Shown: positions 54,176 through 61,219 of the stretch, piece by piece
Layout: each line of letters starts with the position of its first letter
Position numbering within the stretch: position 1 is the stretch's first letter
IMG/VR virus record: IMGVR_UViG_3300022752_000022
Location: 1 to 64,000 of that record
Length of the DNA stretch: 64,000 nt
Source: a virus
Strand: one strand, 5' to 3'
Notes under the pieces: generated by a model
What the model was told of the DNA's origin: nothing
The model's database searches: none
Seen by the model: the letters and a program-made list of their open reading frames with translations, nothing else
Position numbers and translations under genes: made by a program

Positions 54176-55072
54176 ATGAGCAATTTTTTCACATCTTTGG
54201 TGGAACAGTTGAAAGATGAAGATACGAAAATTCTTGCGGATGGTGGTGCGTCTGCTGAGTACACTGGTTGTATTGACACTGGATCTTATGCTCTTAATGC
54301 TCTACTTAGCGGTAGTATTTATGGCGGTGTTCCTAATAATAAAGTAACAGCATTTGCAGGCGAATCTGCTACTGGTAAAACTTTTTTTGTCTTGGGTGTT
54401 GTCAAACGATTTTTAGATGATCATCCTGAAGGTGGTGTGATTTACTTTGATACTGAAGCAGCAGTCACCAAGAACATGATGGAATCAAGAGGTATTGATA
54501 CAAAACGTGTAGTCATCTCTGAGCCTGATACAATTCAAAAGTTTAGACATACAGCGTTACAAATTATAGAAAAGTATTCTGCACAGTCTAAAGATAAACG
54601 AAAGCCTATGATGATGGTGCTTGATTCTCAAGGCCAATTATCTTCAACGAAAGAAATGGAAGATAGTTCAGATGGTAAAGAAACACGAGACATGACAAAA
54701 TCTCAGTTGATCAAAGCAACGTTTCGTGTTCTTAATTTGAAACTTGCAAAGATCAATGTGCCACTCATTGTAACGAATCATGTGTATGATGTTGTTGGAT
54801 GTGCATTGGCAGGAACTAAAATTCAAACTATAGACAAATTAAAAAATATTGAAGATATTTTGGTTGGCGATTATGTAAGAACCATGGTTGGAAATAAAAA
54901 AGTAACTCAAACTTTTAAGTATGAGTGTGACCATTATTATGAAATCGAAATGGAAAATAATTACAAATATTATTTGACTGAAGAACACAAATTAATGATT
55001 CAAGATGGAACATGGAAAAAAGTAAAAGATTTAACAGTAGAAGATGTTGTCATTAATGTCGGAACTATTTAA
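54176..55072 (+). CDS. uvsX: UvsX recombinase N-terminal part fused to N-half of a split intein
   Basis: Residues 1-208 are the RecA/Rad51-like core of T4 UvsX: Walker A AGESATGKT (61-69), FDTEAAVTKNMMESRGID, MMMVLDSQGQLSS (Walker B), NVPLIVTNHVYDVVG. At Cys209 (base 54800) an intein N-domain starts: block A CALAGTKIQ, block B LTEEHKLMI, 90 residues to the stop at 55072. The remaining recombinase is encoded separately from 55741 after a C-intein. The break lies in the DNA-binding L2 loop. A functional UvsX (208+144 residues) requires trans-splicing. The 3' end overlaps the antisense endonuclease by 42 bp. Confidence 0.95.
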   Translation: MSNFFTSLVEQLKDEDTKILADGGASAEYTGCIDTGSYALNALLSGSIYGGVPNNKVTAFAGESATGKTFFVLGVVKRFLDDHPEGGVIYFDTEAAVTKNMMESRGIDTKRVVISEPDTIQKFRHTALQIIEKYSAQSKDKRKPMMMVLDSQGQLSSTKEMEDSSDGKETRDMTKSQLIKATFRVLNLKLAKINVPLIVTNHVYDVVGCALAGTKIQTIDKLKNIEDILVGDYVRTMVGNKKVTQTFKYECDHYYEIEMENNYKYYLTEEHKLMIQDGTWKKVKDLTVEDVVINVGTI

Positions 55073-55681
55073 TATTTTTCTGAGATGAAAATAGGAGTAT
55101 GGTGATTTGTTTGAAGCCTCTCTAATAGAATCATATATGATACCATCAACAGATATTTTCTTAGATTTTGGACTATTTTTTCTTTTAGCAATTTTAGAAG
55201 ATTCTGTTGACATGGCGTTTTTCCATTTATCTGATTTTTTTCTCGCATCAGATAATTTTTGAGACATATTATTTTTTATATAATTTTCTCTCATTAATTC
55301 TCTTAAATTTTCATCAATATGTCTATTTTGAAATTTTTCATTTTTCCAAGCAAGTTTTAATGACTCGGATATTTTTTGCTTATGACTATCAGTAATAATT
55401 TGTTTTTTTCTGGATTCTCGTATCTTATTAATCCATTTTTCTTTTCTGCTTGAATTTAAGAGAAATTTATTAAATCCATTATTAGCTAATAATATGCGTT
55501 CTTCTTCAGTCATTTTTCTACCAGAAAGACATTCCCAAGCAATTTTGTCTTCGATTTTTCTATACTTTTCCCAAAGAATTCTATGCGCTTCTGCGTGTTC
55601 TTCTATAGTTAATTCTACTAAATTCTCTGAATCATCTGATCCACCCATATGTTTTGGGATAATGTGATGAATATGTTTCAT
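55031..55681 (-). CDS. HNH homing endonuclease between uvsX intein halves
   Basis: Minus-strand ORF, 216 residues, the only clear minus-strand gene of the window. HNH motif at the N-terminus (KHIHHIIPKHMGGSDDSENL then VELTIEEHAEAHRILW: His5/His6, Asn20, His29/His33). Then NUMOD3-like helices (SHKQKISESLKLAWKNEKFQ) and a C-terminal NUMOD1/IENR1-like DNA-binding segment (ISVDGIIYDSIREASNKS). It would cut an intein-less uvsX and copy the whole insertion by recombination. No clear ribosome site is seen upstream of its ATG. Convergent with the N-half and divergent from the C-half. Confidence 0.9.
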   Translation of the reverse strand: MKHIHHIIPKHMGGSDDSENLVELTIEEHAEAHRILWEKYRKIEDKIAWECLSGRKMTEEERILLANNGFNKFLLNSSRKEKWINKIRESRKKQIITDSHKQKISESLKLAWKNEKFQNRHIDENLRELMRENYIKNNMSQKLSDARKKSDKWKNAMSTESSKIAKRKNSPKSKKISVDGIIYDSIREASNKSPYSYFHLRKILNSSDINDNIFYC

Positions 55682-55740
55682 AGATGTGTTCGTTTTACTA
55701 TATTGTAGACATGATTATTTATAAAAAAGGAGTTTTTAAA

Positions 55741-56298
55741 ATGACTAGTGGTTTAAAAATTAAAAACATTAAAAAAATTGAGTGTGAAAATACTTCAGTT
55801 TTTGATTTTGAAGTTGAAGATGCACATCATTATATTCTAGAGGATGGCACAGTATCTCACAATTCTTATGTGCCAACGAAAGAAATGAGTGGTGGTTCAG
55901 GTTTGAAGTATACAGCATCCACAATTATATATCTTTCAAAGAAGAAAGAAAAAGACGGCACTGAAGTGATTGGTAACATTGTAAAAGCAAGATTGTATAA
56001 GAGCCGATTGACTAAGGAAAATAAAGATGTGGAAGTCAAAATCACCTATGACAAAGGGTTGGATCGACACTATGGTCTCCTCGACATCGCAGAAAAATAT
56101 AACATACTCAAAAAAGTATCAACACGATACGAATTACCAGACGGATCAAAAGTATTCGGTAAAGCAATCAACGACAATCCAGAAAAGTATTGGACCAAAG
56201 AACTCCTGGATATGATTGATGAAGTATGCAAGAAAGAATTCATGTACGGTCAACTTAATGAAATACCAGCTGAGGAGTTAGATAATGAAACTGAATGA
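55741..56298 (+). CDS. uvsX: C-half of split intein fused to UvsX C-terminal part
   Basis: ATG 55741 is preceded by AAGGAG at optimal 8-bp spacing, so the C-half is translated independently (upstream in-frame ATGs at 55684 and 55711 lack such a site). Residues 1-41 are the intein C-domain: block [15 protein letters not shown] and block G DGTVSHN, ending in His-Asn. Ser42 (base 55864) is the +1 extein residue, then [20 protein letters not shown] continues UvsX exactly from the N-half break. 144 extein residues follow, with an acidic C-terminus as in UvsX. Confidence 0.95.
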
Positions 56299-56593
56299 AG
56301 ATTTTAAAATAACCGACTACGATCACACCGTAGCGAATACCGCAGTTTTAGAATTAATCGGTGGTGTTCATGATGGTGTTAAATTCTATTTCGGTACAAT
56401 GAGCGTTGAAGAAGCTAATGATGAGGGCATTCTTCATTTTGAATATAGCACAGTCGGCGACTATGAAAAGACTTTGACAGAGCAAGACAAAGCTGAGTTT
56501 GACAAAATGATGGGCGATGTAGTATTATCTATTCTTATGGATAACCTTGAAAAAAGAGAACACGAGAATGCGAATCGAAAACAAGATTCTTAA
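56285..56593 (+). CDS. Conserved phage protein between uvsX and helicase, 102 aa
   Basis: [20 protein letters not shown] then [20 protein letters not shown] and an acidic helical C-terminus. Such a small protein commonly lies between uvsX and 41 in aquatic T4-like phages. It overlaps uvsX by 14 bp and the helicase by 26 bp. No motif. Function unknown, though its position in the recombination/replication operon suggests an accessory role. Confidence 0.7.
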
Positions 56594-57956
56594 ACACTTA
56601 CTACTAGACGAAGACTTTACACGCAAAACATTACCATTTCTGAAGAGTGAATATTTTCATGACGGTGCAGACAAAACACTCTTCACACAAATCAACGACT
56701 ATATCATTAAGTATAACACACTGCCTACATACGAAGCATTGGTTATAGAGATTGACAAAAAGAACTTAACCGAATCCTTATACAAAGAAACGATAGGAAG
56801 ACTTGATGAGATTGTTCAGAATAAAGAAACATCTGATACCAAATGGCTCATTGACACAGCAGAGTCCTTCTGTAAAGACAAAGCTGTCTACAATGCTATC
56901 ATGCAAAGTATCCAGATTCTTGACGCAAGTAGTAAAGGCACACTGGACAAAGGGAGCATTCCTACTCTTCTTGCTGACGCTCTATCAGTTGCTTTCGATA
57001 ATCATATCGGTCATGATTTCCTCGATGATGCCGATCCACGGTACGAGTTTTATCATAAAATAGAACAGCGAATTCCTTTTGATCTTGATTATCTGAATCG
57101 CATCACGAAGGGTGGTCTACCAGAAAAAACGCTGAATATTATTTTAGCTGGCACTGGTGTCGGAAAATCCTTGTTTATGTGTCATTGTGCAGCATCTAAT
57201 TTAACTCTAGGCAAGAATGTCCTGTATATTACACTTGAAATGGCCGAAGAACGAATTGCAGAGCGAATTGATGCTAATTTATTGAACATTGATTTAGATA
57301 AGTTGATCGCATTACCGAAAGAATCTTATTTGAAAAAGATAGAACGATTAAGATCCAACACTACAGGTAAACTAATTATCAAAGAGTATCCTACTGCAAG
57401 TGCGAATGTTTCTCATTTCAAACATTTACTCAATGAGTTGAAACTGAAAAAGCAGTTTATACCAGATATCATTTACATCGACTACCTGAATATTTGTTCA
57501 TCTTCACGCATCAAACAAGGATCCAATGTCAATTCTTATACTTATGTCAAAGCGATTGCTGAAGAACTTCGTGGATTAGCAGTTGAAACAAAGGTGCCGG
57601 TGATCTCGGCCACGCAAACCACGAGAGGTGGCTACGATAATTCTGATGTCAGTCTAACAGACACTTCGGAGTCATTTGGATTGCCGGCCACGGCGGATTT
57701 GATGTTTGCTTTGATTTCGACTGAGGAGTTGGCTGATTTGAATCAGATCATGGTCAAACAGTTGAAAAATCGCTACAGTGATCCGACGACAAACAAAAGA
57801 TTTGTCATAGGGGTTGACAGGGCGAAGATGAAGCTGTATGATGTAGAACAAGTGGCTCAGAACGGTTTGATGGACAACGGGCAAGTAGATAAACCAGCAT
57901 TTGACAGCACACCGACGGGCAAGAAGACTTCTAAATTTGATGGTTTTAAGATGTAA
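56568..57956 (+). CDS. gp41: Replicative helicase gp41 (DnaB-like)
   Basis: Hexameric helicase of the primosome, 462 residues from ATG 56568 (T4 475). Walker [21 protein letters not shown] near residue 196, Walker [16 protein letters not shown] near 300, DnaB motif [20 protein letters not shown] near 405. An ATG at 56547 adds 7 residues without a better ribosome site. Notably uninterrupted, although gp41 is a known intein host in related environmental phages. Confidence 0.94.
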
Positions 57957-57964
57957 CTTTGATC

Positions 57965-58189
57965 ATGACATTCAATCCATTACATAAAGTCGGTTACAGT
58001 GCGTGTACCGGTGCAGAAATGTTCCTTGTAAAAGATACATACTATGTTGTTTTTGAACAACAAGTCGTAGCATTTTCCAAATTTAAAGAAGACTGTTTTA
58101 TGAAAATGCTTGATAAAGACTTGATTGGAGAAGTGTTGCGTAAAAACAACGTGATGTTGACAAAGAACGTTTATTCAAGTATCATGTAA
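57965..58189 (+). CDS. Small hypothetical protein, 74 aa
   Basis: Follows the helicase closely and starts at ATG 57965. Mixed alpha/beta with [20 protein letters not shown] then [20 protein letters not shown]. No recognised family. Possibly a helicase-operon accessory protein as in related phages. Confidence 0.6.
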
Positions 58190-58215
58190 GTATGATTAAA
58201 AGTGGAGAAATTGAC

Positions 58216-58359
58216 ATGGCTGAGAAAGAACTTTTGATTGAGTTTTATCGTGATTTTATTGCATCAATCATTGACACAGGTGATTTAGAATTATTCCTAA
58301 AGACGATGAATGAAGAAGTTGAAATGCTGATGCCTCCAAATGGTGAAACGATTCACTAA
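58216..58359 (+). CDS. Small acidic helical protein, 47 aa
   Basis: MAEKELLIEFYRDFIASIID then TGDLELFLKTMNEEVEMLMP: a hydrophobic/acidic amphipathic helix pair. ATG 58216 follows GTGGAGAAATTGAC. An in-frame ATG at 58192 precedes that site. Unknown function. Confidence 0.55.
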   Translation: MAEKELLIEFYRDFIASIIDTGDLELFLKTMNEEVEMLMPPNGETIH

Positions 58360-58360
58360 T

Positions 58361-58489
58361 ATGATAGAATACATACTGAAATATGATATTGCTATGAGGC
58401 TCTGGAATGCTTACTCTAGCATCAATATGACATTGACTGAAATGTTTTTACCACCAACCGTATTATTAATCGTACTATATTTTATATGA
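58361..58489 (+). CDS. Small membrane peptide, 42 aa
   Basis: MIEYILKYDIAMRLWNAYSS then MTLTEMFLPPTVLLIVLYFI: the last ~18 residues form one hydrophobic membrane helix. Starts 1 bp after the preceding stop and overlaps the following gene by 4 bp (ATGA), which supports its being real. Confidence 0.5.
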   Translation: MIEYILKYDIAMRLWNAYSSINMTLTEMFLPPTVLLIVLYFI

Positions 58490-58836
58490 TTATACACTCA
58501 CCGACCAAATTCAGGGGCAAGAAGAAGTGGTCCTCCGCTGACGCAAAGCGAAAGGATGCTGAACTTCAAGCGGAGTGGCAAGAATTCTTAAGCAAAAATC
58601 AGCCCACCATGAAGACTGTAAAAAAGTCTACATACACGCCTCCAAAGACTTATGTCCGTGATTTACCAGTCTATCCAAGTCACTCCACCACGCTACCAGC
58701 CACTTGCACAAAGCCGGTTGAGGGTAAAGTGTACACTGGCACTAAAATGATCGGCATAGGGACTCTCCACAAGTCCAATGCAGTGCCTATCTTCAGCGAA
58801 GAGGAAGCTAAGGATCAAGCGACGATGCGCCGATGA
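58486..58836 (+). CDS. Conserved phage protein, 116 aa
   Basis: IIHSPTKFRGKKKWSSADAK at the N-terminus, a Thr/Pro-rich middle (KKSTYTPPKTYVRDLPVYPS) and a conserved C-terminus (CTKPVEGKVYTGTKMIGIGT then LHKSNAVPIFSEEEAKDQA). Proteins with this C-terminus are widespread in aquatic T4-like phages, function unknown. GC is somewhat higher than in neighbours. A late promoter follows directly. Confidence 0.72.
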   Translation: MIIHSPTKFRGKKKWSSADAKRKDAELQAEWQEFLSKNQPTMKTVKKSTYTPPKTYVRDLPVYPSHSTTLPATCTKPVEGKVYTGTKMIGIGTLHKSNAVPIFSEEEAKDQATMRR

Positions 58837-58838
58837 AT

Positions 58839-58871
58839 TATAAATAGTCCATTCAATCACTGGATGGACTA
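58839..58871 (+). promoter_or_regulatory. Late promoter and start-proximal hairpin before the KxDG gene
   Basis: Perfect TATAAATA (58839-58846) overlaps an 8-bp perfect inverted repeat TAGTCCAT (58845-58852) / ATGGACTA (58864-58871). The right arm ends at the base before ATG 58872 and includes the only SD-like bases (GGATGG). A transcript starting ~6 bp after the octamer would lack part of the left arm, while read-through mRNA from upstream would form the whole hairpin. Confidence 0.7.
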
Positions 58872-59369
58872 ATGAAATTTTTAGAATACATAGCCGAAGC
58901 AACATCAGGCAAAAATCTACATATGGAGCACATTGAGGATAATATTCTCAATGGCGGCGTCTACGGCGCTAGGGAAGCAATCAACTTCCTACGCAAAGTC
59001 CGTGACATGCTTGCGGGCAATTCCGAATCCAAAGTCAATATCACAGTCAAATGGGATGGATGTATCCACGAAGATACAATCGTTCTCACAAATCTTGGTG
59101 ATATGACAATCAAAGAAATAGTAGAGCGATGTCAATGGGACGATAGTCTTATGGTCATGGGCAAGGAATTGGATCTACCATCAAAACCTAATCGCATGGT
59201 TCCTATTTTGGGCGGAATGTTTCAGAATGGAAATAAAAAATGGGTTGAAATTCAACTAGAAGATGGAACAAAATATAAAATGACTGAAGATCATGAGGTG
59301 CATACAGCTAATCGTGGATGGGTAAAAGCATGTGAATTGACTAAAGATGACGATATTACCGAATTATAA
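58872..59369 (+). CDS. KxDG nucleotidyltransferase-like protein, N-part fused to N-half of a split intein
   Basis: Residues 1-63 are the host protein N-terminus (KFLEYIAEATSGKNLHMEHI ... NITVKWDG). K60-W61-D62-G63 matches motif I (KxDG) of ATP-dependent ligases and capping enzymes, where Lys is nucleotidylated. Immediately after Gly63 the intein begins at Cys64 (base 59061): block A CIHEDTIVLTNLGDMTIKEI, block B KMTEDHEVHTANRGWVKACE, 102 residues to the stop. The C-part is encoded from 60044. The identity as a ligase is inferred from motif I only. The protein family itself (415 residues after splicing) is common in aquatic T4-like phages. Confidence 0.9.
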   Translation: MKFLEYIAEATSGKNLHMEHIEDNILNGGVYGAREAINFLRKVRDMLAGNSESKVNITVKWDGCIHEDTIVLTNLGDMTIKEIVERCQWDDSLMVMGKELDLPSKPNRMVPILGGMFQNGNKKWVEIQLEDGTKYKMTEDHEVHTANRGWVKACELTKDDDITEL

Positions 59370-59403
59370 AGTGTGATGGTAATCATCTCAAAATGTCTTC
59401 TTT

Positions 59404-59411
59404 TATAAATA
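59404..59411 (+). promoter_or_regulatory. Late promoter directly before the second homing endonuclease
   Basis: Perfect TATAAATA, 20 bp before ATG 59431, with AAAAAGGAGAATGCG as ribosome site. It lies inside the 61-bp gap after the N-intein stop, so the endonuclease and C-half have their own late transcript. Confidence 0.75.
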
Positions 59412-59430
59412 AAATAAAAAGGAGAATGCG

Positions 59431-60066
59431 ATGACTGACGAAATGAAAGAAAAGTATATTCAAAAATATAAAGAAACATATTCGGTTTCTGAAATTTTAA
59501 GAACATTCAATGATGGAATTGGAAGAAAAAAAATCATAAATCTTTTAAAGGAAGAAGGTATATACGAGGGATTAAATGGACCAAATTATCTGAAAAAGAA
59601 AGTTGAAAATAATGAAAAAATAATGATGAAAAAATATGGTGTTATTAATTGGGGACAAACAAAGGATGGCGGTTACAAAAGCCAAAATAAAATACCATAT
59701 AAAAAAATATCTTATTTAAATGAAGAATATAAAGAATACAAAAATCAAGTTGAAAAAGAAACAAAACTTAATATAAAAAATATTGATTTACCTGAATATT
59801 GTTTTTACACAGGAATACAATTTGCAGATGTTGAGGGTCCCGTTAATCCGAATGATCCAAGAAAGAGAAGTGTTGATCATAAAATTCCAGTAATTATTTG
59901 TTATTTAAATGGCTTTTCTACAAATCAAGCTAGTGATTTAACTAACTTGATTTTCGTTTTGAAATATGTCAATTCAATTAAATCAAACACTGATCACGAG
60001 TCATTTTTGAAAATAACACATAAGATTAGGGAGGTATTTGTAAATGAGGGTTATAAGAGTAAATAA
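59431..60066 (+). CDS. HNH-like endonuclease between split intein halves of the KxDG gene
   Basis: 211 residues, Lys-rich and more AT-rich than neighbours. The N-terminus reads as a helix-turn-helix (KYKETYSVSEILRTFNDGIG then RKKIINLLKEEGIYEG). A MMKKYGVINWGQ segment typical of phage homing-type nucleases follows. The C-terminal catalytic part LPEYCFYTGIQFADVEG, then PRKRSVDHKIPVIICYLNGF and LTNLIFVLKYVNSIKSN, has the D-H and N residues of an HNH/EndoVII-like site (Asp149, His150, Asn172). Same strand as the host gene. Overlaps the C-half by 23 bp. Unrelated in sequence to the uvsX-located endonuclease. Confidence 0.8.
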   Translation: MTDEMKEKYIQKYKETYSVSEILRTFNDGIGRKKIINLLKEEGIYEGLNGPNYLKKKVENNEKIMMKKYGVINWGQTKDGGYKSQNKIPYKKISYLNEEYKEYKNQVEKETKLNIKNIDLPEYCFYTGIQFADVEGPVNPNDPRKRSVDHKIPVIICYLNGFSTNQASDLTNLIFVLKYVNSIKSNTDHESFLKITHKIREVFVNEGYKSK

Positions 60067-61219
60067 ATTAGAAGAAAAATATACTCAGTATGATATTAGT
60101 ACGTCATCTAATAATTTTTATGTGCAAACAAATTCCGGTAGATATGTATTGATTCATAATTCTCCAGCCATTTTTGCTGGTCAAGATCCGTCAGACGGTC
60201 AATTCTTTGTTGCAAAGAAAGGCATCTTCAACAAAAATCCAAAACTCTACAAGACGAATGCTGAGATTGATGCAGACACTTCAGGTGATTTAGCAGACAA
60301 ACTCAAAGCATGTCTTCAATACTTGCCTGAAATTGGCATCAAAGGTGTCATCCAAGGCGACTTAATGTATACTCAAAGTGATCTAAAAAATGTAACAATT
60401 GATGGTGTAAAGTATACAACATTTCATCCAAATACCATTGTTTATGCGGTGCCTTATGATAGTGACATTGGAAGAACAATCCGCAATTCAAAAATGGGCA
60501 TTGTATGGCATACTAGATATGAAGGCGATACATTAGAAAATATGAAAGCAGTCTTCGGAACTGATATACTTGCTGGTATGAAAAAGTCTAGAAATGTCTG
60601 GTTTGACAATGCAGATTATAAAGATGTTTCAGGCAAAGCGTCCATGACAAAAGAGGAGACTGCTGAAGTGACAAAGGTGCTATCACAAGCAGGAAAAGTT
60701 TTCAATGCAATTGATGGCCGATTTTTAGATTCGCTTTCAGATTATCCAGGCTTCGGTGAAGAGTTGAATACAAGAATTAAAGCATTCAATAATTCTAAAA
60801 TTAAACAGCGCCAAAAAATTACAAATGTTCATAGTCATGTAACAGAAATGCTTGACGCACTCTTAGCACATTATCAGAGTGAGTTTGATAGCAAGAAAAA
60901 GCCTGATGCAAAGAAACGTGCTGAAGTCAAAGTCAATGCTATCAAAAGTATGATAAAATCAAAATACAAAGTTCAATTTGAACATATCTTTACGCTAATG
61001 AATTTGTTAGTTGACGCTAAAGATATGCTCAGTAAGAAATTAGATGAAGTAAAGAGTGTAAACACATTTTTATTAACCAAATCTGGATATCAAGTCACTG
61101 GTGTTGAGGGTTATGTCGCAATTGACAAATTGACTGGTGGTGCCGTGAAGATTGTAGATAGACTACAGTTTAGTTATGCTAATTTTTCTCCAGATGTAAT
61201 CAAAGGATGGGAGAGATAG
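60044..61219 (+). CDS. C-half of split intein fused to KxDG nucleotidyltransferase-like C-part
   Basis: ATG 60044 follows GGGAGGTATTTGTAA. Residues 1-39 are the intein C-domain: YDISTSSNNFYVQTNSGRYV (block F) and VLIHN (block G). Ser40 (base 60161) is +1, and SPAIFAGQDPSDGQFFVAKK continues the KWDG motif of the N-part, restoring KWDGSPAIFAG. Later IKGVIQGDLMYTQSDLKNVT could be motif III-like and SKMGIVWHTRYEG motif IV-like. 352 extein residues with helical Lys-rich C-terminal half. The enzyme activity is inferred, the split-intein architecture is seen directly. Confidence 0.9.
   Translation: MRVIRVNKLEEKYTQYDISTSSNNFYVQTNSGRYVLIHNSPAIFAGQDPSDGQFFVAKKGIFNKNPKLYKTNAEIDADTSGDLADKLKACLQYLPEIGIKGVIQGDLMYTQSDLKNVTIDGVKYTTFHPNTIVYAVPYDSDIGRTIRNSKMGIVWHTRYEGDTLENMKAVFGTDILAGMKKSRNVWFDNADYKDVSGKASMTKEETAEVTKVLSQAGKVFNAIDGRFLDSLSDYPGFGEELNTRIKAFNNSKIKQRQKITNVHSHVTEMLDALLAHYQSEFDSKKKPDAKKRAEVKVNAIKSMIKSKYKVQFEHIFTLMNLLVDAKDMLSKKLDEVKSVNTFLLTKSGYQVTGVEGYVAIDKLTGGAVKIVDRLQFSYANFSPDVIKGWER

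What the first reader, a model, noticed from the sequence alone, without database searches (positions are those of the whole stretch)
54176..61219. Two independent fractured genes within 7 kb: a tandem trans-splicing system in one phage
Seen: two split inteins (N-halves 90 and 102 aa, C-halves 41 and 39 aa), both with Cys1, TxxH, His-Asn and Ser+1. Their sequences, insertion sites, endonuclease families and endonuclease orientations differ. Inference: they arrived separately, and their halves must stay orthogonal to avoid mis-spliced chimeras (UvsX joined to the KxDG protein). The +1 residue is Ser in both, so chemistry alone does not prevent cross-reaction. New naturally split inteins are also valuable, as known fast ones come from this environment.
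Basis: partly seen in the sequence, partly recalled or inferred. Interest (0 to 1): 0.9.

Follow-up and report, generated by a model that had tools for sequence, protein, structure and literature searches.

The report
Two split-intein fractured genes, one phage
A marine-type T4-like phage carries two conserved genes, each cut in two by its own mobile element (split intein plus homing endonuclease) and presumably rejoined at protein level; both elements are real and look functional, but the arrangement is of a known kind and several other phages also carry two or more of them.

Summary
Observation confirmed. uvsX is split at 54799/55864 and a DUF6267 gene (predicted ligase-like) at 59060/60161. 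Each half carries half of a canonical split intein (90+41 aa and 102+39 aa), with a free-standing HNH-type homing endonuclease gene between the halves. Intact relatives join seamlessly at both points. In relatives the +1 residue is always Ser when the intein is present and usually Ala or Gly when it is absent. Inteins and nucleases are under purifying selection. The two elements belong to different intein lineages (NrdJ-1-like for DUF6267; nearest solved relative of the uvsX intein is gp41-1) and unrelated nucleases, so they arrived separately. This is the published 'fractured gene' arrangement (Dassa 2009), here in a new target gene (DUF6267) and at a further uvsX site. Two fractured genes in one phage is not unique: Proteus phage PM2 and Salmonella phage SEA1 (uvsX+uvsW) and at least two uncultured relatives share it; another has uvsX in three pieces. 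Extra find: relatives of each nuclease also occur free-standing beside the same, intact gene, which suggests that nucleases and inteins met at a shared target (collaborative homing). Cross-reactivity of the halves remains untested.

The parts
54176..54799 (+). UvsX N-extein (208 aa, ...NHVYDVVG)
   Evidence: phrog_97 UvsX 4e-60; contiguous with the C-extein in empty relatives, e.g. L006 99%
54800..55072 (+). Intein 1 N-half, 90 aa, C1, TEEH, plus stop
   Evidence: best PDB hit gp41-1 (6qaz) E 2.3e-4
55031..55681 (-). HNH homing endonuclease 1 (antisense; 3' end overlaps the IntN1 ORF end by 42 nt)
   Evidence: Pfam HNH 22.4 bits over cut-off; phrog_655 homing endonuclease 1.5e-19; His/Asn/His invariant in 7 relatives
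55716..55723 (-). TATAAATA, T4-type late-promoter-like octamer ahead of endonuclease 1
   Evidence: similar place in 6 of 8 fractured uvsX relatives
55727..55732 (+). Shine-Dalgarno AAGGAG of the UvsX C-half
   Evidence: sequence
55741..55863 (+). Intein 1 C-half, 41 aa, ...VSHN
55864..56298 (+). UvsX C-extein starting Ser+1 ([11 protein letters not shown]...)
   Evidence: phrog_97 1e-17; +1 Ser in all fractured loci
58839..58846 (+). TATAAATA ahead of the DUF6267 N-half
58872..59060 (+). DUF6267 N-extein (63 aa, ends KWDG = putative nucleotidyltransferase motif I)
   Evidence: PF19782 3e-13
59061..59369 (+). Intein 2 N-half, 102 aa, C1, TEDH, plus stop
   Evidence: best PDB hit NrdJ-1 (8ubs) E 2.3e-9
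59404..59411 (+). TATAAATA late-promoter-like octamer ahead of endonuclease 2
   Evidence: exact in 9 of 14 fractured DUF6267 relatives
59431..60066 (+). Endonuclease 2, HNH-like; relatives found only beside or inside DUF6267 genes
   Evidence: no Pfam or PHROG match
60044..60160 (+). Intein 2 C-half, 39 aa, ...LIHN
60161..61219 (+). DUF6267 C-extein starting Ser+1 (SPAIFAG...)
   Evidence: PF19782 5e-85

Best explanation
Two independent 'fractured genes' in one T4-like phage. In each, a mobile element made of a split intein and a free-standing homing endonuclease gene sits at one exact point of a conserved gene: uvsX (RecA-like recombinase, just upstream of the SGGSGLKY segment) and a DUF6267 gene (predicted ATP-dependent ligase-like nucleotidyltransferase, directly after motif KWDG). 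Each gene is expressed as two proteins; the intein halves associate, excise themselves (Cys1, TxxH, HN, Ser+1) and join the exteins, so the phage regains full UvsX and DUF6267 protein by protein trans-splicing. The endonuclease, apparently expressed late from its own TATAAATA promoter and decoupled from the host gene, is expected to cut intein-free alleles of the same gene in co-infecting phages, so that repair copies the element in. Shown by sequence: anatomy, exact insertion, +1 Ser covariation, purifying selection, distinct lineages, history differing from that of the host genes. Inferred: splicing activity, cleavage, homing, late timing, orthogonality.
For: Anatomy. Seamless empty sites: 129 of 143 uvsX and 157 of 163 DUF6267 loci, including L006 (99/97% UvsX) and L068 (DUF6267, 85-86%). 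Distinct fractured lineages beyond the window: 8 for uvsX site A, 14 for DUF6267, with the same gene order and strand. +1 residue: DUF6267 fractured 14/14 Ser, empty 3/111 Ser (Fisher 6e-16); uvsX 7/7 against 11/84 (4e-6), distinct flanks, relatedness not corrected. dN/dS 0.02-0.38 in intein halves and 0.10-0.39 in fractured-locus nucleases. Intein and host gene differ in history: L004 extein 88/82% but intein 45/56%; L212 extein 53/58% but IntC 73%; window against L153 IntN2 76% nt, extein 59% nt. Different lineages. Late-type promoter ahead of the nuclease in 15 of 22 fractured relatives and 0 of 6 free-standing ones.
Against: No expression, splicing or cleavage data. IntN1 and IntC1 are both net negative (-3, -4), so no simple charge attraction between these halves is seen, unlike known DnaE halves (from memory). 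Late promoter assigned by consensus only. Placement of intein 1 near gp41-1 in the tree is weak (53/82). Foldseek alone gave no significant match for DUF6267; the ligase assignment rests on the second-look alignment (Z 8.6) and the KxDG motif.
Confidence: 0.9

Rival explanations
1. The halves work as two-subunit proteins without splicing, as the split NrdA of Aeromonas phage Aeh1 does, and the intein pieces are remnants.
For: Functional split proteins without splicing are known in phages (PMC2988022).
Against: All splicing residues intact, purifying selection on both intein halves, Ser+1 in every intein-bearing allele. UvsX must assemble as a filament and DUF6267 is cut next to its predicted catalytic lysine.
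Confidence: 0.05
2. The two elements are copies of one ancestral insertion that spread inside this genome.
For: Same architecture, both canonical splits with Ser+1, under 5 kb apart; the IntN halves share 35% over 37 aa around block B.
Against: IntC halves show no alignment, nucleases unrelated, joint clade rejected p=0.009, each element has its own relatives at its own site in other phages.
Confidence: 0.02
3. Collaborative homing origin: the endonucleases were first free-standing genes beside uvsX and DUF6267 and later combined with inteins at the same target.
For: HEN1 relatives sit divergently about 36 bp from an intact uvsX (L221, L223; also beside uvsX in L331); HEN2 relatives directly upstream of an intact DUF6267 gene (L280/L305, L313, L314); strand and junction to the downstream coding part match the fractured form. 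T4 SegA lies beside uvsX and cuts it (PMC2988022).
Against: Direction not established: a nuclease could also have left a fractured gene. Cleavage sites unknown. This extends the best explanation and does not exclude it.
Confidence: 0.4
4. Assembly or frameshift artefact splitting ordinary contiguous inteins.
For: The window is a metagenomic virus record.
Against: The same split layout recurs in many independent contigs and in isolate genomes for related cases; nuclease 1 is on the opposite strand.
Confidence: 0.01

Closest known systems
Fractured genes with split inteins (Dassa et al. 2009, NAR 37:2560; gp41-1, NrdJ-1, IMPDH-1; paper not held, known from memory and citations)
   Same: Gene in two ORFs, each with half an intein, free-standing homing endonuclease gene between; marine phage setting
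   Different: Targets are DUF6267 (not found as a fractured gene in the literature searched) and uvsX site A; nucleases are HNH or HNH-like; two in one genome
gp41-1 split intein (PDB 6qaz)
   Same: Nearest solved relative of IntN1 (E 2.3e-4); similar split point and half sizes (88+37 against 90+41)
   Different: Low identity; tree grouping unsupported; different host gene
NrdJ-1 split intein (PDB 8ubs)
   Same: Nearest solved relative of IntN2 (E 2.3e-9); clade support 96/95 with NrdJ-1 and a KP13-7 nrdA intein
   Different: Host gene is DUF6267, not ribonucleotide reductase
Proteus phage PM2 and Salmonella phage SEA1, uvsX + uvsW
   Same: Two fractured genes in one cultured T4-like phage, each with a split intein and an ORF between
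   Different: uvsX site lies 11 aa downstream (site B); second gene is uvsW; loci far apart; annotated as separate genes
MIJ3 split polB intein (PMC6892783)
   Same: Split intein with an HNH endonuclease between gene halves in a phage isolate
   Different: One locus, polB, a different intein type (starts with Ser)
Free-standing nuclease SegA of T4 (PMC2988022)
   Same: Nuclease gene next to its target uvsX, intronless homing
   Different: GIY-YIG family, no intein

Membership tests
Fractured gene (Dassa type) | One host gene split into two separate ORFs at a site uninterrupted in relatives | tested here: met
   both loci
Fractured gene (Dassa type) | N-ORF ends with IntN, C-ORF begins with IntC, splicing residues complete | tested here: met
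Fractured gene (Dassa type) | Free-standing endonuclease gene between the halves | tested here: met
Fractured gene (Dassa type) | Protein trans-splicing activity | not testable with these tools
   needs expression; Ser+1 covariation is indirect support
NrdJ-1-like split intein lineage (intein 2) | Groups with NrdJ-1 in a supported clade | tested here: met
   96/95; phmmer 2.3e-9
gp41-1-like split intein lineage (intein 1) | Groups with gp41-1 in a supported clade | tested here: inconclusive
   phmmer 2.3e-4, tree support 53/82
HNH homing endonuclease (nuclease 1) | HNH motif with invariant His/Asn/His | tested here: met
HNH homing endonuclease (nuclease 2) | HNH domain by profile | tested here: inconclusive
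   no Pfam or PHROG hit; invariant D149-H150, N172, N181; model confidence too low
EDxHD (Vsr-like) endonucleases of fractured genes | EDxHD motif family | not tested
   no model of that family was available
ATP-dependent RNA/DNA ligase fold (DUF6267) | Nucleotidyltransferase fold with KxDG motif I | tested here: inconclusive
   all 50 VIA-align rows shown are ligases, best Z 8.6, rmsd 3.8 over 190 residues; Foldseek not significant; K, D and G of KWDG invariant in 13 intact relatives

The most novel reading that the evidence does not exclude
Phages of this group accumulate several mutually orthogonal split inteins in their replication and late genes, and these elements arise repeatedly when target-specific free-standing nucleases (HEN1 with uvsX, HEN2 with DUF6267) combine with inteins at the same site, so that cis, trans and free-standing forms interconvert.
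Probability: 0.35. Interest if true: 0.65.

Novelty: new member of a known kind. Interest (0 to 1): 0.5.

Why it matters
It adds two naturally split intein families with many natural variants, one in a gene not reported as fractured in the literature searched, and a natural setting in which orthogonality of split inteins must hold inside one cell. The intact-gene-plus-free-nuclease relatives give paired material to test how split-intein elements form, a question open since fractured genes were described.

Tried and rejected
Group I intron or other RNA element: no Rfam match in the window. Read-through or frameshift joining the halves: different strands or frames. More inteins in the same phage: none. 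Recent duplication of one element into the other: rejected. Co-conversion tract: the window differs from L006 mainly in the first ~27 nt right of the uvsX site, but other empty relatives share some of these bases, so it is only suggestive. Structure model of nuclease 2 too poor to use. Melnitz phages first looked like a second double case but both genes are intact. The IMPDH-1 sequence in the tree is from memory and unchecked; gp41-1, NrdJ-1 and Npu DnaE were checked against PDB. No paper found on several split inteins in one phage, in an open-access library only; Dassa 2009 itself is not held.

Full report
Observation. The window holds two pairs of gene halves exactly as described. UvsX: N-half ORF 54176-55072, nuclease 55031-55681 on the other strand, C-half from ATG 55741 to 56298. 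DUF6267: N-half 58872-59369, nuclease 59431-60066, C-half 60044-61219. Splicing residues are complete in both: C1, TEEH or TEDH, HN, Ser+1. Profile scans of the whole 149.6-kb record find these two inteins and no other.

Empty sites. Across IMG/VR relatives, 129 of 143 uvsX and 157 of 163 DUF6267 loci are uninterrupted, the two exteins meeting with no gap at the predicted junctions. L006 has 99% and 97% identical UvsX parts and no intein, so the uvsX element differs between very close kin. The junctions lie at conserved spots: uvsX between TNHVYDVVG and [19 protein letters not shown]6267 right after KWDG. A model of the intact DUF6267 of L068 (pLDDT 80) best resembles ATP-dependent RNA and DNA ligases (Z 8.6; all 50 listed rows are ligases), although Foldseek alone gave nothing significant. 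KxDG would be motif I with the catalytic lysine.

Signs of function. The +1 residue is Ser in every fractured allele (14 of 14 DUF6267, 7 of 7 uvsX distinct flanks) but mostly Ala or Gly in empty ones (Ser in 3 of 111 and 11 of 84). As Ser is the nucleophile of the splicing reaction, this is what active splicing predicts; sequences are related, so the p-values are only indicative. Intein halves and fractured-locus nucleases are under purifying selection. Nuclease 1 has the invariant His/Asn/His; nuclease 2 has conserved D149-H150, N172 and N181 but no family hit.

Expression. TATAAATA, the T4 late-promoter core, occurs 14 times in the window against 6.1 expected, and sits directly ahead of both nuclease genes and of the DUF6267 N-half. 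It is exact in front of the nuclease in 6 of 8 fractured uvsX and 9 of 14 fractured DUF6267 relatives, and in none of 6 free-standing ones. The C-half of UvsX has its own strong ribosome site. Late nuclease expression is thus likely but inferred.

Separate arrivals. The IntC halves do not align, the IntN halves share 35% over 37 residues, and the nucleases are unrelated. The nearest solved relative of IntN1 is gp41-1 (E 2.3e-4), of IntN2 NrdJ-1 (E 2.3e-9). The tree supports intein 2 with NrdJ-1 (96/95) and rejects one joint clade of the two families (p=0.009), while the gp41-1 grouping is weak. Identities of inteins and host proteins disagree strongly (L004 against L212), as expected for mobile elements. 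gp41-1 and NrdJ-1 have been used together as an orthogonal pair (PMC7090010), which makes orthogonality here plausible but does not show it.

Other phages with several. Proteus phage PM2 and Salmonella phage SEA1 each have fractured uvsX (site B, 11 aa downstream) and fractured uvsW. Among uncultured relatives, L216 has fractured uvsX and gp41 helicase; L299 has a helicase split near the start of its intein plus fractured DUF6267; L326 has uvsX in three pieces by two splits; L219 has a split intein at site A and a contiguous one at site B; L297 has inteins in polymerase, helicase and DUF6267. Klebsiella phage KP13-7 nrdA shows two IntN halves. None of the other fractured-uvsX or fractured-DUF6267 contigs that reach the second gene show the window's own pair. 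So the window is one of several multi-fracture phages.

Origin. Relatives of nuclease 1 lie free-standing beside intact uvsX (L221, L223, L331) and relatives of nuclease 2 directly upstream of intact DUF6267 (L280/L305, L313, L314). In a scan for nuclease 2 relatives every hit examined lay at a DUF6267 gene. This fits a model in which target-specific nucleases and inteins met at one site, as proposed for introns with free-standing nucleases (established idea; T4 SegA beside uvsX, PMC2988022). Direction is not proven.

Verdict. Real, well supported, and a new member of a known kind.

Noticed in passing
L326 / L423 (IMGVR_UViG_3300032320_002701): uvsX in three pieces: an atypically split intein at the P-loop (short IntN after GESSTGK, long IntC part) plus the canonical site A split; two trans-splicing events would be needed for one protein.
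   Followed up: partly
L299 / L421 10455-13080: gp41-type helicase split at the P-loop with an IntN of only about 16 residues; the intein at the same site is contiguous in L297/L422.
   Followed up: partly
L219, L220 (L425): UvsX with a split intein at site A and a complete contiguous mini-intein 11 residues downstream at site B.
   Followed up: yes
L221, L223, L331; L280/L305, L313, L314: Free-standing relatives of the two nucleases immediately beside intact uvsX or intact DUF6267.
   Followed up: partly
L007 2387-4599: uvsX fractured at site B with a different, forward-oriented nuclease and its own TATAAATA.
   Followed up: partly
L216 / L424 4384-7426: Second fractured gene (gp41 helicase) about 0.5 kb downstream of fractured uvsX.
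   Followed up: partly
OP617745 (Klebsiella phage KP13-7) 30877-36407: nrdA broken by two apparent split inteins; annotated as separate genes.
   Followed up: partly
L422 7609-10671: DNA polymerase intein N and C parts in adjacent ORFs with only about 15 nt between and no nuclease.
   Followed up: no
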